A stretch of 64,000 nucleotides of DNA from positions 1-64,000 of the forward strand of contig JAHHGV010000007.1 of the NCBI GenBank assembly GCA_019359695.1, in the 5' to 3' direction. Under the pieces are notes generated by a model, which did not search any database, was not told the origin of the DNA, and worked only from the letters and a program-made list of their open reading frames with translations. This DNA is from Brasilonema angustatum HA4187-MV1 (lineage in GTDB: Bacteria; Cyanobacteriota; Cyanobacteriia; Cyanobacteriales; Nostocaceae). Of the stretch, positions 40,908-48,934 are shown one piece after another. Position numbers and translations under genes: made by a program. How positions within the stretch are numbered: position 1 is the first letter of the stretch; each line of letters starts with the position of its first letter.

Positions 40908-41297
40908 TTAAGGTTGCTGTACTTCACAAGTAGTTAATCCCTTAGCTCTTTTTATAAACTTCTCATCAAAAGTATAAAATTGTGTATGATTTTGACTATT
41001 GGCAAGGTGAAAAGCATCCGCAAAATCTAAGCCAGCTTCATGCCATTGCAGCGATTGAGCCACCACATTTGCGTTATTAAGATGAACATTTGGTAAGCCG
41101 AAAAGTTTTCTTAAAGCTTCACAAATCTCGACAGGTTTAAATTTATAGGCAAATCTAAGCACCCATTCAGTTTCGAGAATGACAGTATCAGGTATAAAAA
41201 CATTCTGTGTTTGAAAAATTTCTAGACTCTTTTGGTATTGTAATTCGTCATCTTGAGTCAAAAAACGCACAATTATATTAGTATCAACTGCCACCAT
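40908..41297 (-). CDS. vapC: VapC-type PIN-domain toxin
   Basis: The 129-residue PIN-domain ribonuclease has the acidic active-site residues visible in VAVDTNIIVRFL (Asp5), ILETEWVL (Glu), LDFADAFHLAN (Asp) and FYTFDEKF (Asp). It should cleave RNA when released from its antitoxin. ATG start at 41297 lies inside the end of the AbrB-type antitoxin gene (14-bp overlap), so the two are translationally coupled. Confidence 0.92.
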   Translation of the reverse strand: MVAVDTNIIVRFLTQDDELQYQKSLEIFQTQNVFIPDTVILETEWVLRFAYKFKPVEICEALRKLFGLPNVHLNNANVVAQSLQWHEAGLDFADAFHLANSQNHTQFYTFDEKFIKRAKGLTTCEVQQP

Positions 41298-41547
41298 GCC
41301 ATGATTCCTCTATACCCTGACGGATAGCATCATCCATTTCTTCAAGAGTTTTTGGTATGCCTTGGTATTTTAAGCATCCAGCAACATCAGCCAATGTGGT
41401 TTCTAAAAAAGGTTTTTTTGGTTTCAGAAGAATTCCGTCACCCATATCAATTGCTATTAGTTCCTGTCCCACTTCCCAGCCATGAGACTTTCGCAATGGT
41501 TCGGGAATCATTACTTGTCCTTCATTGGAGATTTTTGTGATTTCCAT
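41284..41547 (-). CDS. vapB: AbrB-type VapB antitoxin
   Basis: The 87-residue protein has a swapped-hairpin AbrB DNA-binding N-terminus (ISNEGQVMIPEPLRKSHGWEVGQ) and an acidic C-terminal tail that would wrap the toxin (LEEMDDAIRQGIEESW). It precedes and overlaps vapC. Expected to repress its own promoter. ATG at 41547. Confidence 0.92.
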   Translation of the reverse strand: MEITKISNEGQVMIPEPLRKSHGWEVGQELIAIDMGDGILLKPKKPFLETTLADVAGCLKYQGIPKTLEEMDDAIRQGIEESWHGGS

Positions 41548-42182: not shown

Positions 42183-42473
42183 ATGGGCATTGATGAAATA
42201 CTTAAAGCTTATCGGGAAGAAATTTTGAGAATTGCGGCTTTGTACGGAGCGTATAATGTCCGGGTATTTGGTTCTGTGGCGAGAGGAGAAGCAAGACTAG
42301 ATAGTGATGTAGATTTTCTGGTGGAACTTGAACCACAACGAACCTTACTAGATCAAATTGCTTTGATGCAGTCCTTGGAAGAATTGCTAGGACGTAAAGT
42401 GGATCTAACTGAACCAGAAACTCTACATGAGTTGATTAGAGATAAAGTGTTGCGGGAAGCTGTGGTGTTGTGA
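42183..42473 (+). CDS. mntA: MntA-type nucleotidyltransferase antitoxin
   Basis: The 96-residue minimal nucleotidyltransferase has the signature GSVARGEARLDSDVDFLVE, including the GSx10DxD metal motif. In HepT-MntA systems this enzyme adenylylates the HepT RNase to inactivate it. It overlaps the next gene by 4 bases (GTGA), so they are translationally coupled. ATG at 42183. Confidence 0.92.
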   Translation: MGIDEILKAYREEILRIAALYGAYNVRVFGSVARGEARLDSDVDFLVELEPQRTLLDQIALMQSLEELLGRKVDLTEPETLHELIRDKVLREAVVL

Positions 42474-42808
42474 GAGATGATCGGCTGTACTTGAGCAACA
42501 TCTTTGAATGTATCGAGCGCATAGAGTCTTATACTCGTGATGGCAAAGAGGTATTTTTGCAAACCACTATAATTCAAGATGCGGTAATTAGAAATTTTGA
42601 AATTATTGGGGAAGCAACGAAGCGGTTATCTCCCGAAATCAGAGCAGTTTACCCAGATGTACCTTGGCAGCAAGTAGCAGGTTTTAGAGATGTACTGATT
42701 CATGATTATTTGAAGGTGAATTTAAATCGAGTTTGGGGCGTGATTGAGCAGAATTTGCCCCAACTAAAGGCAACTATTGAGGCGATTTTGCTTGAATTGG
42801 GGAAGTAA
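42470..42808 (+). CDS. hepT: HepT-type HEPN RNase toxin
   Basis: The 112-residue helical HEPN protein has the RX4HXY catalytic motif (FRDVLIHDYLKV), the Tyr being the site AMPylated by MntA in characterised relatives. Also typical is IRNFEIIGEATKRLSPE. The GTG start overlaps the mntA stop. With mntA it forms an apparently intact toxin-antitoxin pair. Confidence 0.92.
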   Translation: MRDDRLYLSNIFECIERIESYTRDGKEVFLQTTIIQDAVIRNFEIIGEATKRLSPEIRAVYPDVPWQQVAGFRDVLIHDYLKVNLNRVWGVIEQNLPQLKATIEAILLELGK

Positions 42809-43086: not shown

Positions 43087-46000
43087 TCAACGCTTGATGT
43101 CGTCACACAAACGCCTATCTTCTGCGCTGACATCGGGGTTATTTTTATTTTGTAGGTAGTCTCGTATTAAGCCACACCCCCGCACCAGCAAATTATCTAA
43201 ATCGAAATTCCACAGTTTTATAGTATTATCACTGGACGCAGAAGCAAGGGTTTTACCATCGGGACTAAAGCTGAGGCTTTGAATATAGGAGCTGTTAAAA
43301 TTACCTTTGTCTTCTTTGAGAGTTTGAATCTCCCTACCAGTGTTAACATTCCACAATTTCACCGTATTGTCATGTGATGCGGAAGCAAGGGTTTTGCCGT
43401 CGGGACTAAAGCTGAGGCTTGTAAACAAGTCTGTATGACCTTTAAGGGTTTTAATTTCCTTACCACTTTTGACATCCCACAGTTTCGCTGTCTTGTCAAT
43501 AGATGCGGTAGCAAGGATTTTACCATCCGGGCTAAAACTGACGCTATCAACAGTGTTTGTATGCCCTTGAAGGGTTTTAATTTCCTTGCCACTGTTTATA
43601 TCCCACAGTTTCGCTATCTTGTCAGCAGACCCGGAAGCAAGAGTTTTTCCATCCGGGCTAAAACTGACGCTATCAACAGTGTTTGTATGCCCTTGAAGGG
43701 TTTTAATTTCCTTGCCACTGTTTATATCCCACAGTTTCGCTGTCTTGTCCAAAGCAGACCCGGAAGCAAGAGTTTTTCCATCGGGACTAAAGCTGACGCT
43801 ATTAACATATTCTGTATGCCATTTCAGGATTTGTCTATCACTGTTGACATCCCACAAAATTATCGTATTGTCAGATACGGAAGCAAGGGTTTTTCCATCG
43901 GGACTAAAGCTGACGCTATTAACATTGTCTGTATGACCTTTCAGGATTTTAATTTTCTTGCCACTTTTTAGATCCCACAGTTTCACCGTTTTGTCACGAG
44001 ATGCGGCAAGGGTTTTACCATCGGGACTAAAGCTGGTACTATCAACCCATGATGTATGCCCTTGAAGAATCTTAACTTTCCTAGCACTGTTGATATTCCA
44101 CAGTTTCACCGTGTCGTCAGTAGATGCAGAAGCAAGAGTTTTGCCATCTGGGCTAAAGCTAACGCCATTAACTCCGGATGTATGCCATTGAAGGGTTTTA
44201 ATTTCCTTGCCACTGTTTATATCCCACAGTTTCGCTGTCTTGTCAACAGATGCGGAAGCAAGGATTTTACCATCTGGGCTAAAGCTAACGCTATTAACCC
44301 AGGATGCATGTCCAGTAAGTGTTTTAACTTCCCTACCACTGTCTGTGTCCCACAGTTTCACCGTGTTGTCAAGTAATGATGCGGAAGCAAGGGTTTTGCC
44401 ATTCGGGCTAAAGCTGACGCTTGTAACAGAGGATGTATGCCCATTAAGGGTTTTAATTTCTCTACCAGTGTTGATATCCCACAGTTTCACCGTTTTGTCA
44501 TATGATGCGGAAGCAAGGGTTTTGCCATCTGGGCTAAAGCTGACGCTTGTAACAGAGGATGTATGCCCCTTAAGGGTTTTAATTTCTGTACCACTGTTGA
44601 GATCCCACAGTTTCACTGTTTTGTCACTAGATGCCGAAGCGTCAGCTTTTGCCATTCGGGCTAAAGCTGACGCTTGTAACATGTTCTGTATGCCCAATAA
44701 GTGTTTTAATTTCTCTACCAGTGTTGAGATCCCACAGTTTCACTGTTTTGTCACTAGATGCCGAAGCAAGGATTTTACCATCCGGGCTAAAGCTAACACT
44801 ATTAACGGAGTCTGTATGACCTTTGAGAATTTTAATTTCCTTGCCACTGTTGATATCCCAAAGTTTCACCGTATTTTCATTAGCCCCGGAAGCAAGGGTT
44901 TTGCCATCTGGGCTAAAGCTGACGCTATTAACGGGGGCTGTATGACCTTTAAGGGTTTTAACTTGAAACTCTTCTACCACCTTTAGCAATGTCGATAGAG
45001 TTTGCATCTGTGTTTCCCCTGCTATCCAAGGTTTCCAAATATTTCCTGTAAGGAATTTTCCACCGTTCTAATTCTTCCCGGTTCATCCGCACCAGTAATT
45101 CTGGTTGATAATTCTGCAACGCTTTGCCAAAAGGTTCGTAATCATCAAGCGCCTTGCTAAAAAAGTCCGCCCGCAAAGTAAGCACCAGAGTAAAAAACGG
45201 TGCATTGTTCACCGCTTGCAGCAATCCATCTAAAAAGATTTTGCGTTCCGATGCATCCGCGCAAAGCGTATAAATTTCTTCAAATTGATCGCCAACAAGC
45301 AACAATCGGCGCTGCGAGTCGGGAGATAAAGTTTGGATGCTTTCGATAGTTGTTTGCAGAGTTGACGTATCTTGTCGCAATTGGAGTTCTAGTTTAGCTT
45401 CGAGTAAGTGGCGATCGTCGCCATCCTCCAAGTTAAACGCTGATGCCAACGCCAACGCTAACGACTCAAAAGGATTTTTCAAAGGACGAAACGAGAGAAT
45501 CAGCCAACTATTAACAGTATCCCGACGCAACTGAGGAATTAAACCAGCAAACACCAACGATGACTTTCCGCTTCCAGAAGCACCAACCACAGCAACTAAC
45601 GGCTTGCTGTTAACGGAGGATACAAGCTGCAAAGTCGCCTTCTCTCTACCAAAAAAATACTGGGCGTTCGCTTCCCCAAACGCCGCTAACCCTTGATAGG
45701 GACAAAAAGAAATTATCCCCAAACTTTGCCAAGTTGGTGGTATTTCCGTCTGATTTTGGACAATAACAGGCAACCAACTTGCACAAGGAAATTCTGACTC
45801 AAGTTTTTGTAACTCACTCCGCGCATTTCTCACAGAAATATAGAGAGACTTTCCACTAGTAAACTCTTGTAAAAAATACTTCAAAAACTTCTGCGCTACC
45901 TGATCTGGTACAGGTTCCCGCATGACAATCACTTGCGGAATATTCAATTGTTCTAATTCGTAGGCAATACCCAAACCATCGCAAGAATTAAAAAACGCTA

Positions 46001-46784
46001 TTTGCAATCGTCTTTTTATCGCCACTTGCAAAGCATCTCTCAATTCTGCCATCGTCAAACTATCACAGTTATTTAAATAAATCCTTCCCTGCATTCCTTG
46101 AGTTTGGGAATGTCCAGAGAAAAACAACATATCCCACCCTAGATTATCTTGCAGGTAATGATTTAATTCCTGGCGGGATGGGTTGTCAGTTAAAATAATT
46201 TCGGCATCATTGCCACAGAAACTTTGCAAATATTGCTTATCTTCGTCTATATTAATTCCCGTGCGATCGCCTAAAATAATTAAAATTCTAATCTTTTCTC
46301 GGTAAGGTCTTTCCCCACGTTCAGCATTGGGTGAGCTTAAAGCCACTTCTACCAGTGGAAACTTACTTAAAATATCCCACAAATGCCAGGGTAGCTGACG
46401 TAATTCATGGCAAGAAGTTGTAATAATTATTCTGATTTCATTTTCTGGTTCTAATTCCTTTAAACAATTGACAATTGAGTCAAAAGATGCTGAAGCTAGC
46501 CAAGAATTAAAATTCTCCAGTAAGTTTATTGATTGCTTTTCGCACTCTTCATTCAGAGATTGAATATTAATGCTGCGAACTTGAATAGCTTTAATTCTAA
46601 ATTGACCATACCGACTGCGATAGGTATTGTGCCATGTATTTAATAATGGGGTAATAGTCGTATTGCCTGGTAACTTAGCTGTGATTGTTCGATGAGGTGT
46701 TTCTCCATCATTAGCAATTTCTAAAGTTACATTAAGTTCGGAATTAATCTTACCATAAAACTTGAGCAGCACTAATTTTTTCAT
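43087..46784 (-). pseudogene. CHAT-STAND-WD40 signalling protein, broken by frameshifts
   Basis: The gene starts at ATG 46784 (MKKLVLLKFYG). Domains in order: unassigned N-terminus; CHAT caspase-like protease with His225 (FFSGHSQT) and Cys268 (FFNSCDGLG); STAND ATPase with Walker A GASGSGKSS (about aa 401-409) and GDQFEEIYTL. The ATPase is cut short after MNREELER. The frame then ends at 44958, while a WD40 frame opens at 45007. A one-base change near 44640 shifts the frame again, and the WD40 part continues to 43087. Added together there are about 14 WD40 units, enough for two seven-bladed propellers. It is third in an operon after a sigma-like gene and a DUF1822 gene. The frameshifts could be decay or sequencing error, but the missing ATPase C-terminus argues for real damage. 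Confidence 0.85.
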
Positions 46785-46859
46785 AAGCAATGTAAATGAT
46801 TTTTTTTTGTAGGGACGAAGGGCTATAAGAAAGTAGGAACACGGTAGAGCGATCGCCCC

Positions 46860-46994
46860 CAATACGGTTCGGTTAAGATCCCCCCGCCTGCGGCGACCCC
46901 CTTAAAAAGGGGGTAAAAGAGGGTTAAAAGCCCCCCTTTTTAAGGGGGGTTGGGGGGATCTTCAAAAGATTAAAACGTTAACCGAACCGTATTG
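46860..46994. mobile_element. 135-bp MITE with 10-bp target duplication, copy 2
   Basis: Nearly identical to 6194-6328, with the same CAATACGGTTCGGTTAA inverted ends. The flanking CGATCGCCCC at 46850-46859 and 46995-47004 is an exact 10-bp duplication. It sits between the DUF1822 gene and the CHAT gene of one operon, where its hairpins could block read-through. Confidence 0.88.
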
Positions 46995-47019
46995 CGATCG
47001 CCCCCACGCAATATACTTA

Positions 47020-47961
47020 TCACACAACGAACTCTTGTCTTACTTTCGACTCTCCTAAAATGACATCAATACTAAATGTCTCCCCAAAATCAGCGCTAAA
47101 TTCGACTTCAATCCAATTATCTTTCTGCCGAGAAGTCGTATCTAAAACTTCCTCTCCCTGATCATCAATCACAGCCACCTTTAATCCTTCAGATATATAC
47201 ACTTTTTCCCCAGGTATATATTCATCTTTAGGGAGAGACACTTGTATCAAAATTTTCACTTCATCTTGATTTTTAATTGCTAACTGATTTTCTGCTGCGA
47301 GCGTCACAATCAAAGCAACAGATTCGCCATTTAACTCCAAACCCAAATCAATTTTTCTACCGCGTGTGATACTGAAACTTCTACACCCCATCCATTCGAT
47401 TTGTTGCGGATGTAAAAGTTCATCAATTGTCTGCCAGCCTTCTGTAATAACTCCTTTTATCCATTGCTGAAGACTAACTGTTGCTGCTTGTTCTTTCTCC
47501 GTCAAATAATCGAGTAAATCGTCTACTGATTGCAACTGACTCAGAGAAACTTTTGCGGCTGCTTGAGTTGTAAAACCTAGAATCGTCGCTGATTTTAAAG
47601 ATTCGCTCAGCTGCACGGCTACATAGCCAACTCTATCAAATCTAACCTCTGGCGGAATCTCCAAATATTCTGCATTTGGTAAAACAGGACGACACTCTAA
47701 CTTTCCAATATTTTTGACTTCTAACTCTGCTACATCTATTAAACTCCGCATCCAAGGATTGTAATTATCTTCTTCTTCTTGATTGGTTTCAAAATCCATA
47801 CAGCGAAGATAAGAATCTACTGCATATACAGCTAAAGTATTGAGATATATTTTTCTGGCATTTTCATTGTTTGATATCCCTTGTCTGCGCTTATCAGCCT
47901 TATCATGAGCCTCAAAACTCAAAGGAACTCTAAAAGATATTTGTTCAGCGTTAGCGTTCAT
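47020..47961 (-). CDS. DUF1822 family protein
   Basis: The 313-residue soluble protein of the cyanobacterial DUF1822 family starts ISFRVPLSFEAHDKA, then NTLAVYAVDSYLRCMDFETN, a central CRPVLPNAEYLEIPPEVR strand region, and a C-terminal beta-rich part with sequences such as VYISEGLKVAVIDDQGEEVLD. Function unknown. Its gene follows a sigma-like gene by 47 bp and precedes the CHAT-STAND gene, an arrangement repeated elsewhere in cyanobacteria to my knowledge. A role as adaptor, inhibitor or protease target within that module is an inference. Confidence 0.85.
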   Translation of the reverse strand: MNANAEQISFRVPLSFEAHDKADKRRQGISNNENARKIYLNTLAVYAVDSYLRCMDFETNQEEEDNYNPWMRSLIDVAELEVKNIGKLECRPVLPNAEYLEIPPEVRFDRVGYVAVQLSESLKSATILGFTTQAAAKVSLSQLQSVDDLLDYLTEKEQAATVSLQQWIKGVITEGWQTIDELLHPQQIEWMGCRSFSITRGRKIDLGLELNGESVALIVTLAAENQLAIKNQDEVKILIQVSLPKDEYIPGEKVYISEGLKVAVIDDQGEEVLDTTSRQKDNWIEVEFSADFGETFSIDVILGESKVRQEFVV

Positions 47962-48008
47962 AATTAATTATCCTTAATGTTGAAGTGCAAAGAGTGAATG
48001 ATTGTAAA

Positions 48009-48695
48009 CTACTGTAAATATCTACGAAAATAATCGATAATCTTACGCTTTTTTAGACTCCGTTGGTAAAGCTCAGAAAGTCTTGGTATTGGATGATCTA
48101 ATTTTTCCGATATATACTTCCACTCTTCTCCATCTAATCTCATTAATAAAATTCGTTGCAAATTGGCATTTATGTCATTTCCGATGTAAGTAATCTGTAA
48201 AATCCTTTCTGGATCATCTTTGATAAATTCTCTAAGTAAATAATTTTCGCTATTTTCGTAGGTTTGAGATACTTCTTTTTCTTTTAGTTCTTTGCGAACT
48301 CTAGACAATTGCCCTTTCGCCGAATTATCAAAACCAACTTCCAAACTATATAATTCATCCAGACAGAAGATTGCTTGTTGTCGTCTGGCTTGTCTGAGAA
48401 TCTCAAAAAACCGTGAGTTCATTATTTGATTTACCCAAGCCATAACCGGATGTTGTGGATTGTAATTATGGATATTTTCGCAAATTTTCATCCAGGTTTT
48501 TCCCAGTGCTTCGTCATAAATGTCTTGAAAATGAGGATAATCTTCCCATTCTGTAAATCTTTTTATTTTTCCGGAATCCTGAATTTTTTTGATTAACCGA
48601 TTCAACGCTTTCCTTCGTTCACGACTCTTAGGCGGATGTTGTTGTGCTTCGTTTACTAACTGTCGCAGTTGATAATTTAAAACATCTTCATCCAT
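48009..48695 (-). CDS. Sigma-70-like (ECF-type) transcription factor of the CHAT operon
   Basis: The 228-residue protein resembles a divergent sigma factor: a region-2-like helix set (DIYDEALGKTWMKICENI, AWVNQIMNSRFFEILRQARRQ) and a C-terminal region-4-like helix-turn-helix (RILLMRLDGEEWKYISEKL, RLSELYQRSLKK). The start at 48695 is fixed by a perfect AGGAGG 7 bases upstream (AGGAGGTTTCAATG). A longer open frame to 48791 lacks such a site. It is the first gene of the sigma/DUF1822/CHAT-STAND operon and could drive that operon or an associated response. Confidence 0.8.
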   Translation of the reverse strand: MDEDVLNYQLRQLVNEAQQHPPKSRERRKALNRLIKKIQDSGKIKRFTEWEDYPHFQDIYDEALGKTWMKICENIHNYNPQHPVMAWVNQIMNSRFFEILRQARRQQAIFCLDELYSLEVGFDNSAKGQLSRVRKELKEKEVSQTYENSENYLLREFIKDDPERILQITYIGNDINANLQRILLMRLDGEEWKYISEKLDHPIPRLSELYQRSLKKRKIIDYFRRYLQ

Positions 48696-48934
48696 TGAAA
48701 CCTCCTGCTTAACTCCAAAAGTTCGGTAATTTGTTGTAAATATCGAAACATTAATATAAAATGATGCGATAAGACTCCCGTACCACTTCAAACCCTTCTA
48801 CGAATGAGACGGGGAGTTTTTACGCAAAATTAAGAATAATATTGTATGTAGTACAAAACTACATTATTTATAGTATCGAAAATCTATAATTTTCATTAGT
48901 GCAATTCGCGATCTCATTCCCTTTGGAAGTTACC

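What the first reader, a model, noticed from the sequence alone, without database searches (positions are those of the whole stretch)
43087..48695. Sigma-like factor, DUF1822 protein and CHAT-STAND-WD40 protease in one operon: candidate undescribed signalling or defence system
Three co-directional genes: an ECF-sigma-like protein with a perfect AGGAGG start, a DUF1822 protein 47 bp later, and a caspase-like CHAT protease fused to a STAND ATPase and about 14 WD40 units. STAND NTPases are known ligand-triggered switches and CHAT domains are known proteases. In type III-E CRISPR a CHAT protease cleaves a partner (Csx30) that restrains a sigma factor. By analogy I infer that activated CHAT-STAND could cleave DUF1822 or the sigma-like protein and so convert ligand sensing into transcription or cell suicide. 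The analogy is in gene composition only.
Basis: partly seen in the sequence, partly recalled or inferred. Interest (0 to 1): 0.78.

Follow-up and report, generated by a model that had tools for sequence, protein, structure and literature searches.

The report
Protease-gated sigma switch, broken sensor gene
Many cyanobacteria carry a three-gene alarm circuit (a gene-switching sigma factor, a partner protein and a caspase-like sensor protease) that probably switches on itself and, in some relatives, other genes including several exported proteins; the copy in this window has a broken sensor gene, and the trio was already predicted in 2021, but I found no report of its likely promoter and targets.

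Summary
The three co-directional genes are real: an ECF-type sigma (48009-48695), DUF1822 (47020-47961) and an EACC2-like + CHAT + STAND + WD40 gene. The last is broken here: about 290 codons, including half of the STAND domain, are missing at about 45062, with two frame breaks; a relative of the same family (L129) has it whole. The arrangement is conserved: a co-directional gene precedes 126 of 132 DUF1822 ORFs; a protease gene follows 90 of 132. It is not undescribed: Kaur et al. 2021 reported EACC2-caspase + ECF sigma + DUF1822 neighbourhoods. What I did not find in print is its DNA target. A fixed-spacing element (TTTGTAAM-N13..15-TGCRTAAAA) has 97 sites in 195 genomes against 4 for the reversed pattern, 94 of them in genomes with this sigma. 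Sites precede sigma operons, an extra CHAT-STAND unit, and other genes; recurrent families are subtilases, DUF4114, M23, TPS haemagglutinins, trypsins, M50. In the window clade a variant element is kept; its exact form occurs once in the genome. Best reading: a sensor-activated CHAT protease relieves DUF1822 restraint of an autoregulated sigma. That DUF1822 is the inhibitor, and is cleaved, is inferred; suicide is not supported.

The parts
48799..48826 (-). promoter-like element TGCGTAAAA-N13-TTCGTA, 131 bp before the sigma ATG
   Evidence: 17 of 17 window-clade sigma upstreams, 16 with 0 mismatches and 1 with 1; one exact site in the own genome
48847..48863 (.). palindrome TGTA-N9-TACA upstream of the element, candidate operator
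   Evidence: in the 5 sequences aligned; not kept in the Calothrix-type loci L176, L178-L180, L205; not tested for chance
48009..48695 (-). ECF-type sigma factor (228 aa)
   Evidence: ribosome-binding site read
47020..47961 (-). DUF1822 protein (313 aa): N-terminal mixed alpha/beta part and C-terminal beta-rich part
   Evidence: PF08852 E 1e-57; AF2 model pLDDT 86.5, pTM 0.64
44958..46784 (-). EACC2-like + CHAT + first half of nSTAND1, broken at about 45062
   Evidence: start codon placed by comparison with own paralogs
46335..46784 (-). N-terminal alpha+beta domain in the EACC2 position; boundary approximate
   Evidence: AF2 model pLDDT 86.8
45981..46112 (-). stretch from His225 to Cys268 of the CHAT domain
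   Evidence: both at least 90% conserved in 51 sequences; the catalytic role is recalled from the CHAT/caspase family
45063..45701 (-). partial nSTAND1 (profile 1-194 of 379)
   Evidence: the relative in L129 has 1-378
44642..45007 (-). WD40 units in a second frame
43087..44697 (-). WD40 units in a third frame (11 stretches)

Best explanation
It is a decayed copy of a widespread cyanobacterial signalling module. In intact copies a variable C-terminal sensor (STAND-WD40, CHASE2 and others) activates an EACC2-CHAT cysteine protease; the protease cleaves or dislodges DUF1822, which holds the ECF-type sigma; the freed sigma transcribes its own operon through a fixed-spacing promoter element and, in several lineages, further genes, among them several exported proteins and extra CHAT-STAND sensors. 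Shown here: gene order and its conservation, the conserved CHAT His/Cys pair, sigma homology, the element and its link to sigma-bearing genomes. Inferred: that this sigma reads the element, that DUF1822 is the restraint, that CHAT cleaves it, and that ligand binding triggers CHAT. In the window the sensor-protease gene is broken, so this copy is probably no longer inducible.
For: Order: 126 of 132 DUF1822 ORFs have a co-directional gene directly upstream, 101 within 100 bp, 23 overlapping; 90 of 132 have a protease gene within two genes downstream (76 EACC2-CHAT, 9 TPR-CHAT, 3 trypsin, 2 C14) against 33 of 1118 genes further off. In 80 named loci 75 have the sigma directly upstream. Element: 97 sites in 195 genomes, reversed pattern 4; the sigma was found in 137 of the 195 genomes and in 38 of the 41 with sites; two of the other three sites precede psaL, and the two distinct contexts of those three lack the third box. 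In 209 loci fetched by DUF1822, 35 of 47 box pairs lie 13-14 bp apart and TAGA peaks at 26 bp (62 cases) (some loci are the same place twice). Third box: GAG in 16 of 18 non-self sites of family f13 and GAT/GAA in 13 of 14 of f6, as in their own sigma promoters (2 of 2, 3 of 3). Two of 22 motif-A sites precede a second CHAT-STAND gene. Partial distance correlations over 58 loci: sigma-DUF1822 0.52, DUF1822-CHAT 0.44, sigma-CHAT 0.32, as for a chain with DUF1822 in the middle. By ORF length the third gene is broken or a remnant in 6 of 16 assessable window-clade loci while the sigma ORF is open in all 16, as expected if DUF1822 is a lock and CHAT the key.
Against: No binding, cleavage or expression data. 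DUF1822 resembles no anti-sigma among the 50 fold rows shown, none at E <= 0.001. 38 of 132 DUF1822 ORFs have none of the labelled genes within two genes. Only 66 of 185 upstreams hold TGCRTAAA (control 140 of 2097), so other sigma clades must use other signals. In families f10 and f50 the third box of self and other sites does not agree. In the window clade the TTTGTAAM box is not in place. A crude hydrophobic N-terminus test did not separate targets (18 of 49) from background (30%). Target genomes are related, so counts are not independent. DUF1822 intactness in the breakage count is by construction, since loci were baited with it. TGCRTAAA on the opposite strand is also raised (21 of 185 against 64 of 2097), unexplained.
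Confidence: 0.5

Rival explanations
1. The CHAT-sensor protein itself is the anti-sigma, as in the transmembrane anti-sigma DdvA, and DUF1822 is a scaffold or co-factor.
For: The EACC2-CHAT model matches DdvA structures 8rot (E 1.1e-5) and 8rw5 (3.8e-5), named anti-sigma by their entries; a review passage says the ECF sigma DdvS controls an antiphage island (PMC12288465). 36 of 76 adjacent EACC2-CHAT genes carry CHASE2.
Against: His and Cys of the CHAT pair are at least 90% conserved, which a pure binder would not need; sigma-CHAT is the weakest of the three partial correlations; the sigma ORF stays open where the CHAT gene is broken.
Confidence: 0.2
2. Autoproteolysis: the caspase domain cuts its own protein, as Kaur et al. 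propose, and the sigma acts downstream without DUF1822 being a protease substrate.
For: Proposed in PMC8195603 section 9.
Against: Does not explain the tight sigma-DUF1822 order, nor why 14 DUF1822 ORFs have a TPR-CHAT, trypsin or C14 protease gene next.
Confidence: 0.15
3. The conserved element is the site of another regulator such as RpaB (HLR1), not of the sigma.
For: HLR1-like repeat with at most 1 mismatch in 32 of 185 upstreams against 35 of 2097 controls (the control set still holds some sigma genes; consensus read in PMC11633204 passages); two sites precede psaL.
Against: RpaB is near universal in cyanobacteria (recalled), yet 94 of 97 sites lie in the 137 genomes where the sigma was found and 3 in the other 58.
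Confidence: 0.2
4. Abortive-infection or suicide system.
For: STAND and CHAT parts occur in known suicide systems (recalled).
Against: Recurrent predicted targets are exported families and the circuit's own genes; PADLOC gives only weak matches to the ATPase stretch of the third gene and none to the other two.
Confidence: 0.1

Closest known systems
EACC2-caspase / ECF sigma / DUF1822 neighbourhoods (Kaur et al. 2021, eLife, PMC8195603)
   Same: The same three gene families; constant N-terminal alpha+beta + caspase module; variable C-terminus including STAND.
   Different: In the parts I read (section 9 and search passages) no promoter, target genes or DUF1822 role is named; DUF1822 is called a TPR protein there, while the model here is mixed alpha/beta plus a beta-rich part. 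The window copy is broken.
Type III-E CRISPR CASP/Craspase: Csx29 TPR-CHAT, Csx30, CASP-sigma (PMC10028731, passages read)
   Same: CHAT protease, ECF sigma and a third protein; predicted sigma sites within the locus.
   Different: RNA-guided trigger there; no match of DUF1822 to Csx30 in the 50 fold rows shown.
DdvS/DdvA of Myxococcus xanthus (PDB 8rot; PMC12288465, one passage)
   Same: ECF sigma with a regulator whose fold matches EACC2-CHAT.
   Different: I saw no mention of DUF1822; the primary papers are not held.
Classical ECF sigma, anti-sigma and regulated proteolysis (RseA-DegS, RsiW, named in PMC10028731 passages; review PMC8103513 passages)
   Same: Sigma with a partner gene, protease gate (inferred here), AAC/CGT-type promoter, autoregulation (inferred here).
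   Different: Caspase-like protease fused to its own sensor.

Membership tests
EACC2-caspase / ECF sigma / DUF1822 system | alpha+beta domain directly before a caspase-like domain | tested here: met
   AF2 model and CHAT by Pfam; identity with the published EACC2 alignment could not be compared
EACC2-caspase / ECF sigma / DUF1822 system | ECF sigma and DUF1822 genes adjacent | tested here: met
EACC2-caspase / ECF sigma / DUF1822 system | variable C-terminal part | tested here: met
   CHASE2 36, nSTAND1 with or without WD40 8, other 32 of 76
EACC2-caspase / ECF sigma / DUF1822 system | intact sensor-protease gene in the window | tested here: not met
Type III-E CRISPR CASP | CHAT protease of the Csx29 kind | tested here: inconclusive
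   CHAT fold match 8d9h E 4.3e-9, but no TPR family in the window protein at E 0.01
Type III-E CRISPR CASP | Csx30-like sigma inhibitor | tested here: not met
   no PDB sequence match at E <= 1; not among the 50 fold rows shown
Type III-E CRISPR CASP | Cas7-11 and CRISPR array | not tested
   no dedicated search made
ECF sigma factor | sigma-70 ECF homology | tested here: met
ECF sigma factor | AAC / CGT promoter and autoregulation | tested here: inconclusive
   TGTAAC-N15..17-CRT form before many relatives' sigma genes; in the window clade the AAC half is not in place; criterion read in PMC8103513 passages
ECF sigma factor | cognate anti-sigma | not testable with these tools
   no complex prediction or assay available

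The most novel reading that the evidence does not exclude
A bacterial counterpart of the animal Toll / NF-kappaB logic: sensor-gated caspase-like proteases (STAND-WD40 or CHASE2 receptors) release an ECF sigma from the inhibitor DUF1822, and the sigma induces a secreted arsenal of lectin-linked peptidoglycan hydrolases, proteases and TPS adhesins, plus more receptors, so that filamentous cyanobacteria mount an inducible extracellular response to other cells. The window holds a copy whose receptor has decayed.
Probability: 0.25. Interest if true: 0.85.

Novelty: new member of a known kind. Interest (0 to 1): 0.6.

Why it matters
The kind was predicted in 2021, and I found no paper naming its promoter or targets. 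A sharply spaced, sigma-linked promoter element makes its output testable: it names candidate target genes and gives a reporter. If right, caspase-like signalling in cyanobacteria drives transcription of exported proteins, not only cell death, and DUF1822 gains a function to test.

Tried and rejected
Suicide or phage-defence reading: dropped for want of support. DUF1822 as Csx30 kin: no match seen. The element as an Rfam RNA: only two matches, both below their gathering scores. A wide regulon for the window's own motif A: not found; exact once in the own genome, and in 118 family genomes 22 sites against 7 for the reversed pattern, 7 of the 22 without a related gene following. Protease swap in the trypsin clade: weakened, because 8 of 11 such named loci keep a CHAT-STAND gene within six genes, either strand. 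Signal-peptide enrichment by a crude score: negative. Which two of the four conserved boxes the sigma reads was not settled. dN/dS of the window against L168 (sigma 0.64 on a small dS of 0.09, DUF1822 0.20, CHAT part 0.23, STAND part 0.37) gave no clear sign of relaxed selection on the CHAT part.

Rows dropped before counts: the 120 survey regions were chosen from the listed PF08852 matches, leaving out weaker ones, a few second matches close to a chosen one and the f24 matches, and matches that the call did not list. Two of the 132 DUF1822 ORFs are pieces of one place (L062). Upstream genes went into A1 only if co-directional, 130-600 aa and within -100 to 210 bp (111 of 132; 110 used, one being a DUF1822 piece). 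71 distinct contexts were examined of 97 sites; 8 examined site rows had no gene within 600 bp in the DNA held. Of 66 first genes 12 were sigma, 5 shorter than 90 aa, 49 others; 47 of these 49 were scanned, two duplicates left out. print 25 of 40 and 25 of 72 families, so single hits may be hidden. In one search at most 15 candidates per genome were scored, so a sigma can have been missed. The 2097 control upstreams still hold some sigma genes, which makes the comparison conservative.
Full report
What is there. Minus strand, 48695 down to 43087: sigma-like gene (228 aa, ATG 48695 behind AGGAGG), 47 bp, DUF1822 (313 aa), then the sensor-protease gene. The third gene starts at 46784, has an alpha+beta domain and a CHAT domain, then nSTAND1 profile positions 1-194 of 379, and breaks at about 45062. 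Against the 1309-aa gene of Scytonema tolypothrichoides (L168) the window matches residues 1-575, then 867 onward in another frame, and changes frame again near 44650.

Is it a system? The own genome has 11 DUF1822 matches, 10 over the family's cut-off. Of 146 genomes of the phylum 102 had a match, many of them single weak ones in small genomes. I fetched 120 regions chosen from the listed matches, 9 own regions and used the window: 132 DUF1822 ORFs in 130 loci. 126 have a co-directional gene directly upstream, median gap 24.5 bp; within two co-directional genes downstream 76 have EACC2-CHAT, 9 TPR-CHAT, 3 trypsin, 2 C14, 3 a TPS protein, 38 none of these, 1 is at a contig edge. Of 110 upstream genes 62 match TIGR02937 and 36 Sigma70_r4_2 at E <= 0.01; the profile of 29 window-type members finds ECF sigma factors first in the PDB. 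In 80 named loci 75 have the sigma directly upstream; next come EACC2-CHAT in 60, trypsin in 11, a WD40 remnant in 1, none in 5, contig end in 3.

Is it new? Not as a kind. Kaur et al. 2021 (PMC8195603; section 9 read whole, other passages by search) describe EACC2 + caspase proteins with variable C-termini and say that most TRADD-N-independent neighbourhoods also hold an ECF sigma and DUF1822. They propose autoproteolytic activation and transcription of many genes. My searches listed no paper on a promoter or targets of this trio; the library lacks most subscription papers. DUF1822 is called a TPR protein there; the model here (pLDDT 86.5, pTM 0.64) has a mixed alpha/beta part and a beta-rich C-terminal part, with no PDB match at E <= 0.001.

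The promoter element. Upstream of the sigma, 17 of 17 window-clade loci hold TGCRTAAAA-N13-TTCGTA, 16 of them exactly, though the sigma of L170 is only 55% identical to the window's. Most loci of the trypsin clade have TGCGTAAAA-N13-GAAGATA, and eight others TGCRTAAAA-N13-[TC]CCGAAA. Exact motif A in 118 family genomes: 22 sites, reversed pattern 7; 13 precede the sigma, 2 a second CHAT-STAND gene, 7 nothing related. Motif B: 13 sites, control 0, 12 before the sigma, one of these a 79-aa piece. Outside the window clade a TTTGTAAM box often lies 13-14 bp further up. The pair was then searched in 195 genomes of the order: 97 sites in 41 genomes, reversed pattern 4. The window-type sigma was found at E <= 1e-8 in 137 of the 195, among them 38 of the 41. 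In 209 loci fetched by DUF1822 the spacing is sharp: 35 of 47 pairs at 13-14 bp, C.GA[GTA]A at 14 bp (26), TAGA at 26 bp (62) (some loci are the same place held twice). TGTAAC-N15..17-CRT fits the AAC/CGT form that a review gives for ECF promoters (PMC8103513 passages), but other box pairs are possible, and the first box also resembles half of an RpaB HLR1 site.

Targets. Of 71 distinct contexts seen, 47 have the third box (chance 1.8%). Its letters follow the own sigma promoter in families f13 and f6 but not in f10 and f50. Of 66 first genes 12 are sigma genes; 47 others were scanned: S8 5, DUF4114 5, M23 5, TPS 4, trypsin 3, M50 3, and 2 each of DUF4347, CHAP, SH3_3, PPC and ricin lectin; single hits include PsaL, a GTPase, a cytochrome peroxidase and Cas1. 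Families overlap within proteins. Examples: DUF4114 + C-type lectin + S8 (L326), M23 + ricin lectin (L297), M23 + tectonin (L347), SH3 + CHAP (L324). That most of the recurrent families are exported is recalled, not tested; a crude signal-peptide score showed no enrichment. Of 47 random genes TPS hit 1 and none of the other recurrent families appears among the 25 of 72 families shown. In the own genome two sites precede a 246-aa protein without a Pfam match (L318) and a 773-aa protein that is probably the cytochrome peroxidase hit (L342); whether the window's sigma reads them is unknown.

Mechanism. The EACC2-CHAT model matches separase, Craspase TPR-CHAT, SAVED-CHAT and the anti-sigma DdvA. 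The His/Cys pair is at least 90% conserved in 51 sequences. Distance correlations suggest DUF1822 as the middle partner. By ORF length the third gene is broken or a remnant in the window, L169, L175, L176, L179 and L180, 6 of 16 assessable window-clade loci (L167 is cut by its contig end), with the sigma open in all 16. I therefore favour a lock (DUF1822) and key (CHAT), at 0.5; DdvA-like restraint by CHAT itself is the main rival.

Noticed in passing
small genomes of family f24 (no loci fetched): Many of these 1.6-2.3 Mb genomes carry one weak PF08852 match (E about 1e-4 to 1e-13); those listed by place lie in ORFs of about 500-1300 aa.
   Followed up: no
window 46866-47010: A GC-rich palindromic repeat-like stretch lies between DUF1822 and the CHAT gene, seen by eye.
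   Followed up: no
window 40908-41547 (-) and 42183-42808 (+): A PIN-like / AbrB-like pair (by eye) and a nucleotidyltransferase-domain gene (PF01909) with an overlapping downstream ORF, resembling toxin-antitoxin pairs.
   Followed up: no
survey and named loci with CHASE2, for example L010, L014, L075, L108, L220, L224: CHASE2-type copies often sit with DUF928, a TPR-CHAT protein and TPS haemagglutinin genes.
   Followed up: partly
L182, L185, L190, L191, L193, L100: A trypsin-repeat gene lies between DUF1822 and a CHAT-STAND-WD40 gene on the same strand; in L185, L188, L192 and L198 the CHAT gene has its own TTTGCGTAAAA box.
   Followed up: partly
L265 (G155 contig 38): A window-type element with no sigma ORF in the 1.5 kb held downstream, perhaps an orphan promoter.
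   Followed up: no
185 sigma upstreams: TGCRTAAA is also raised on the opposite strand (21 of 185 against 64 of 2097 controls), unexplained.
   Followed up: no
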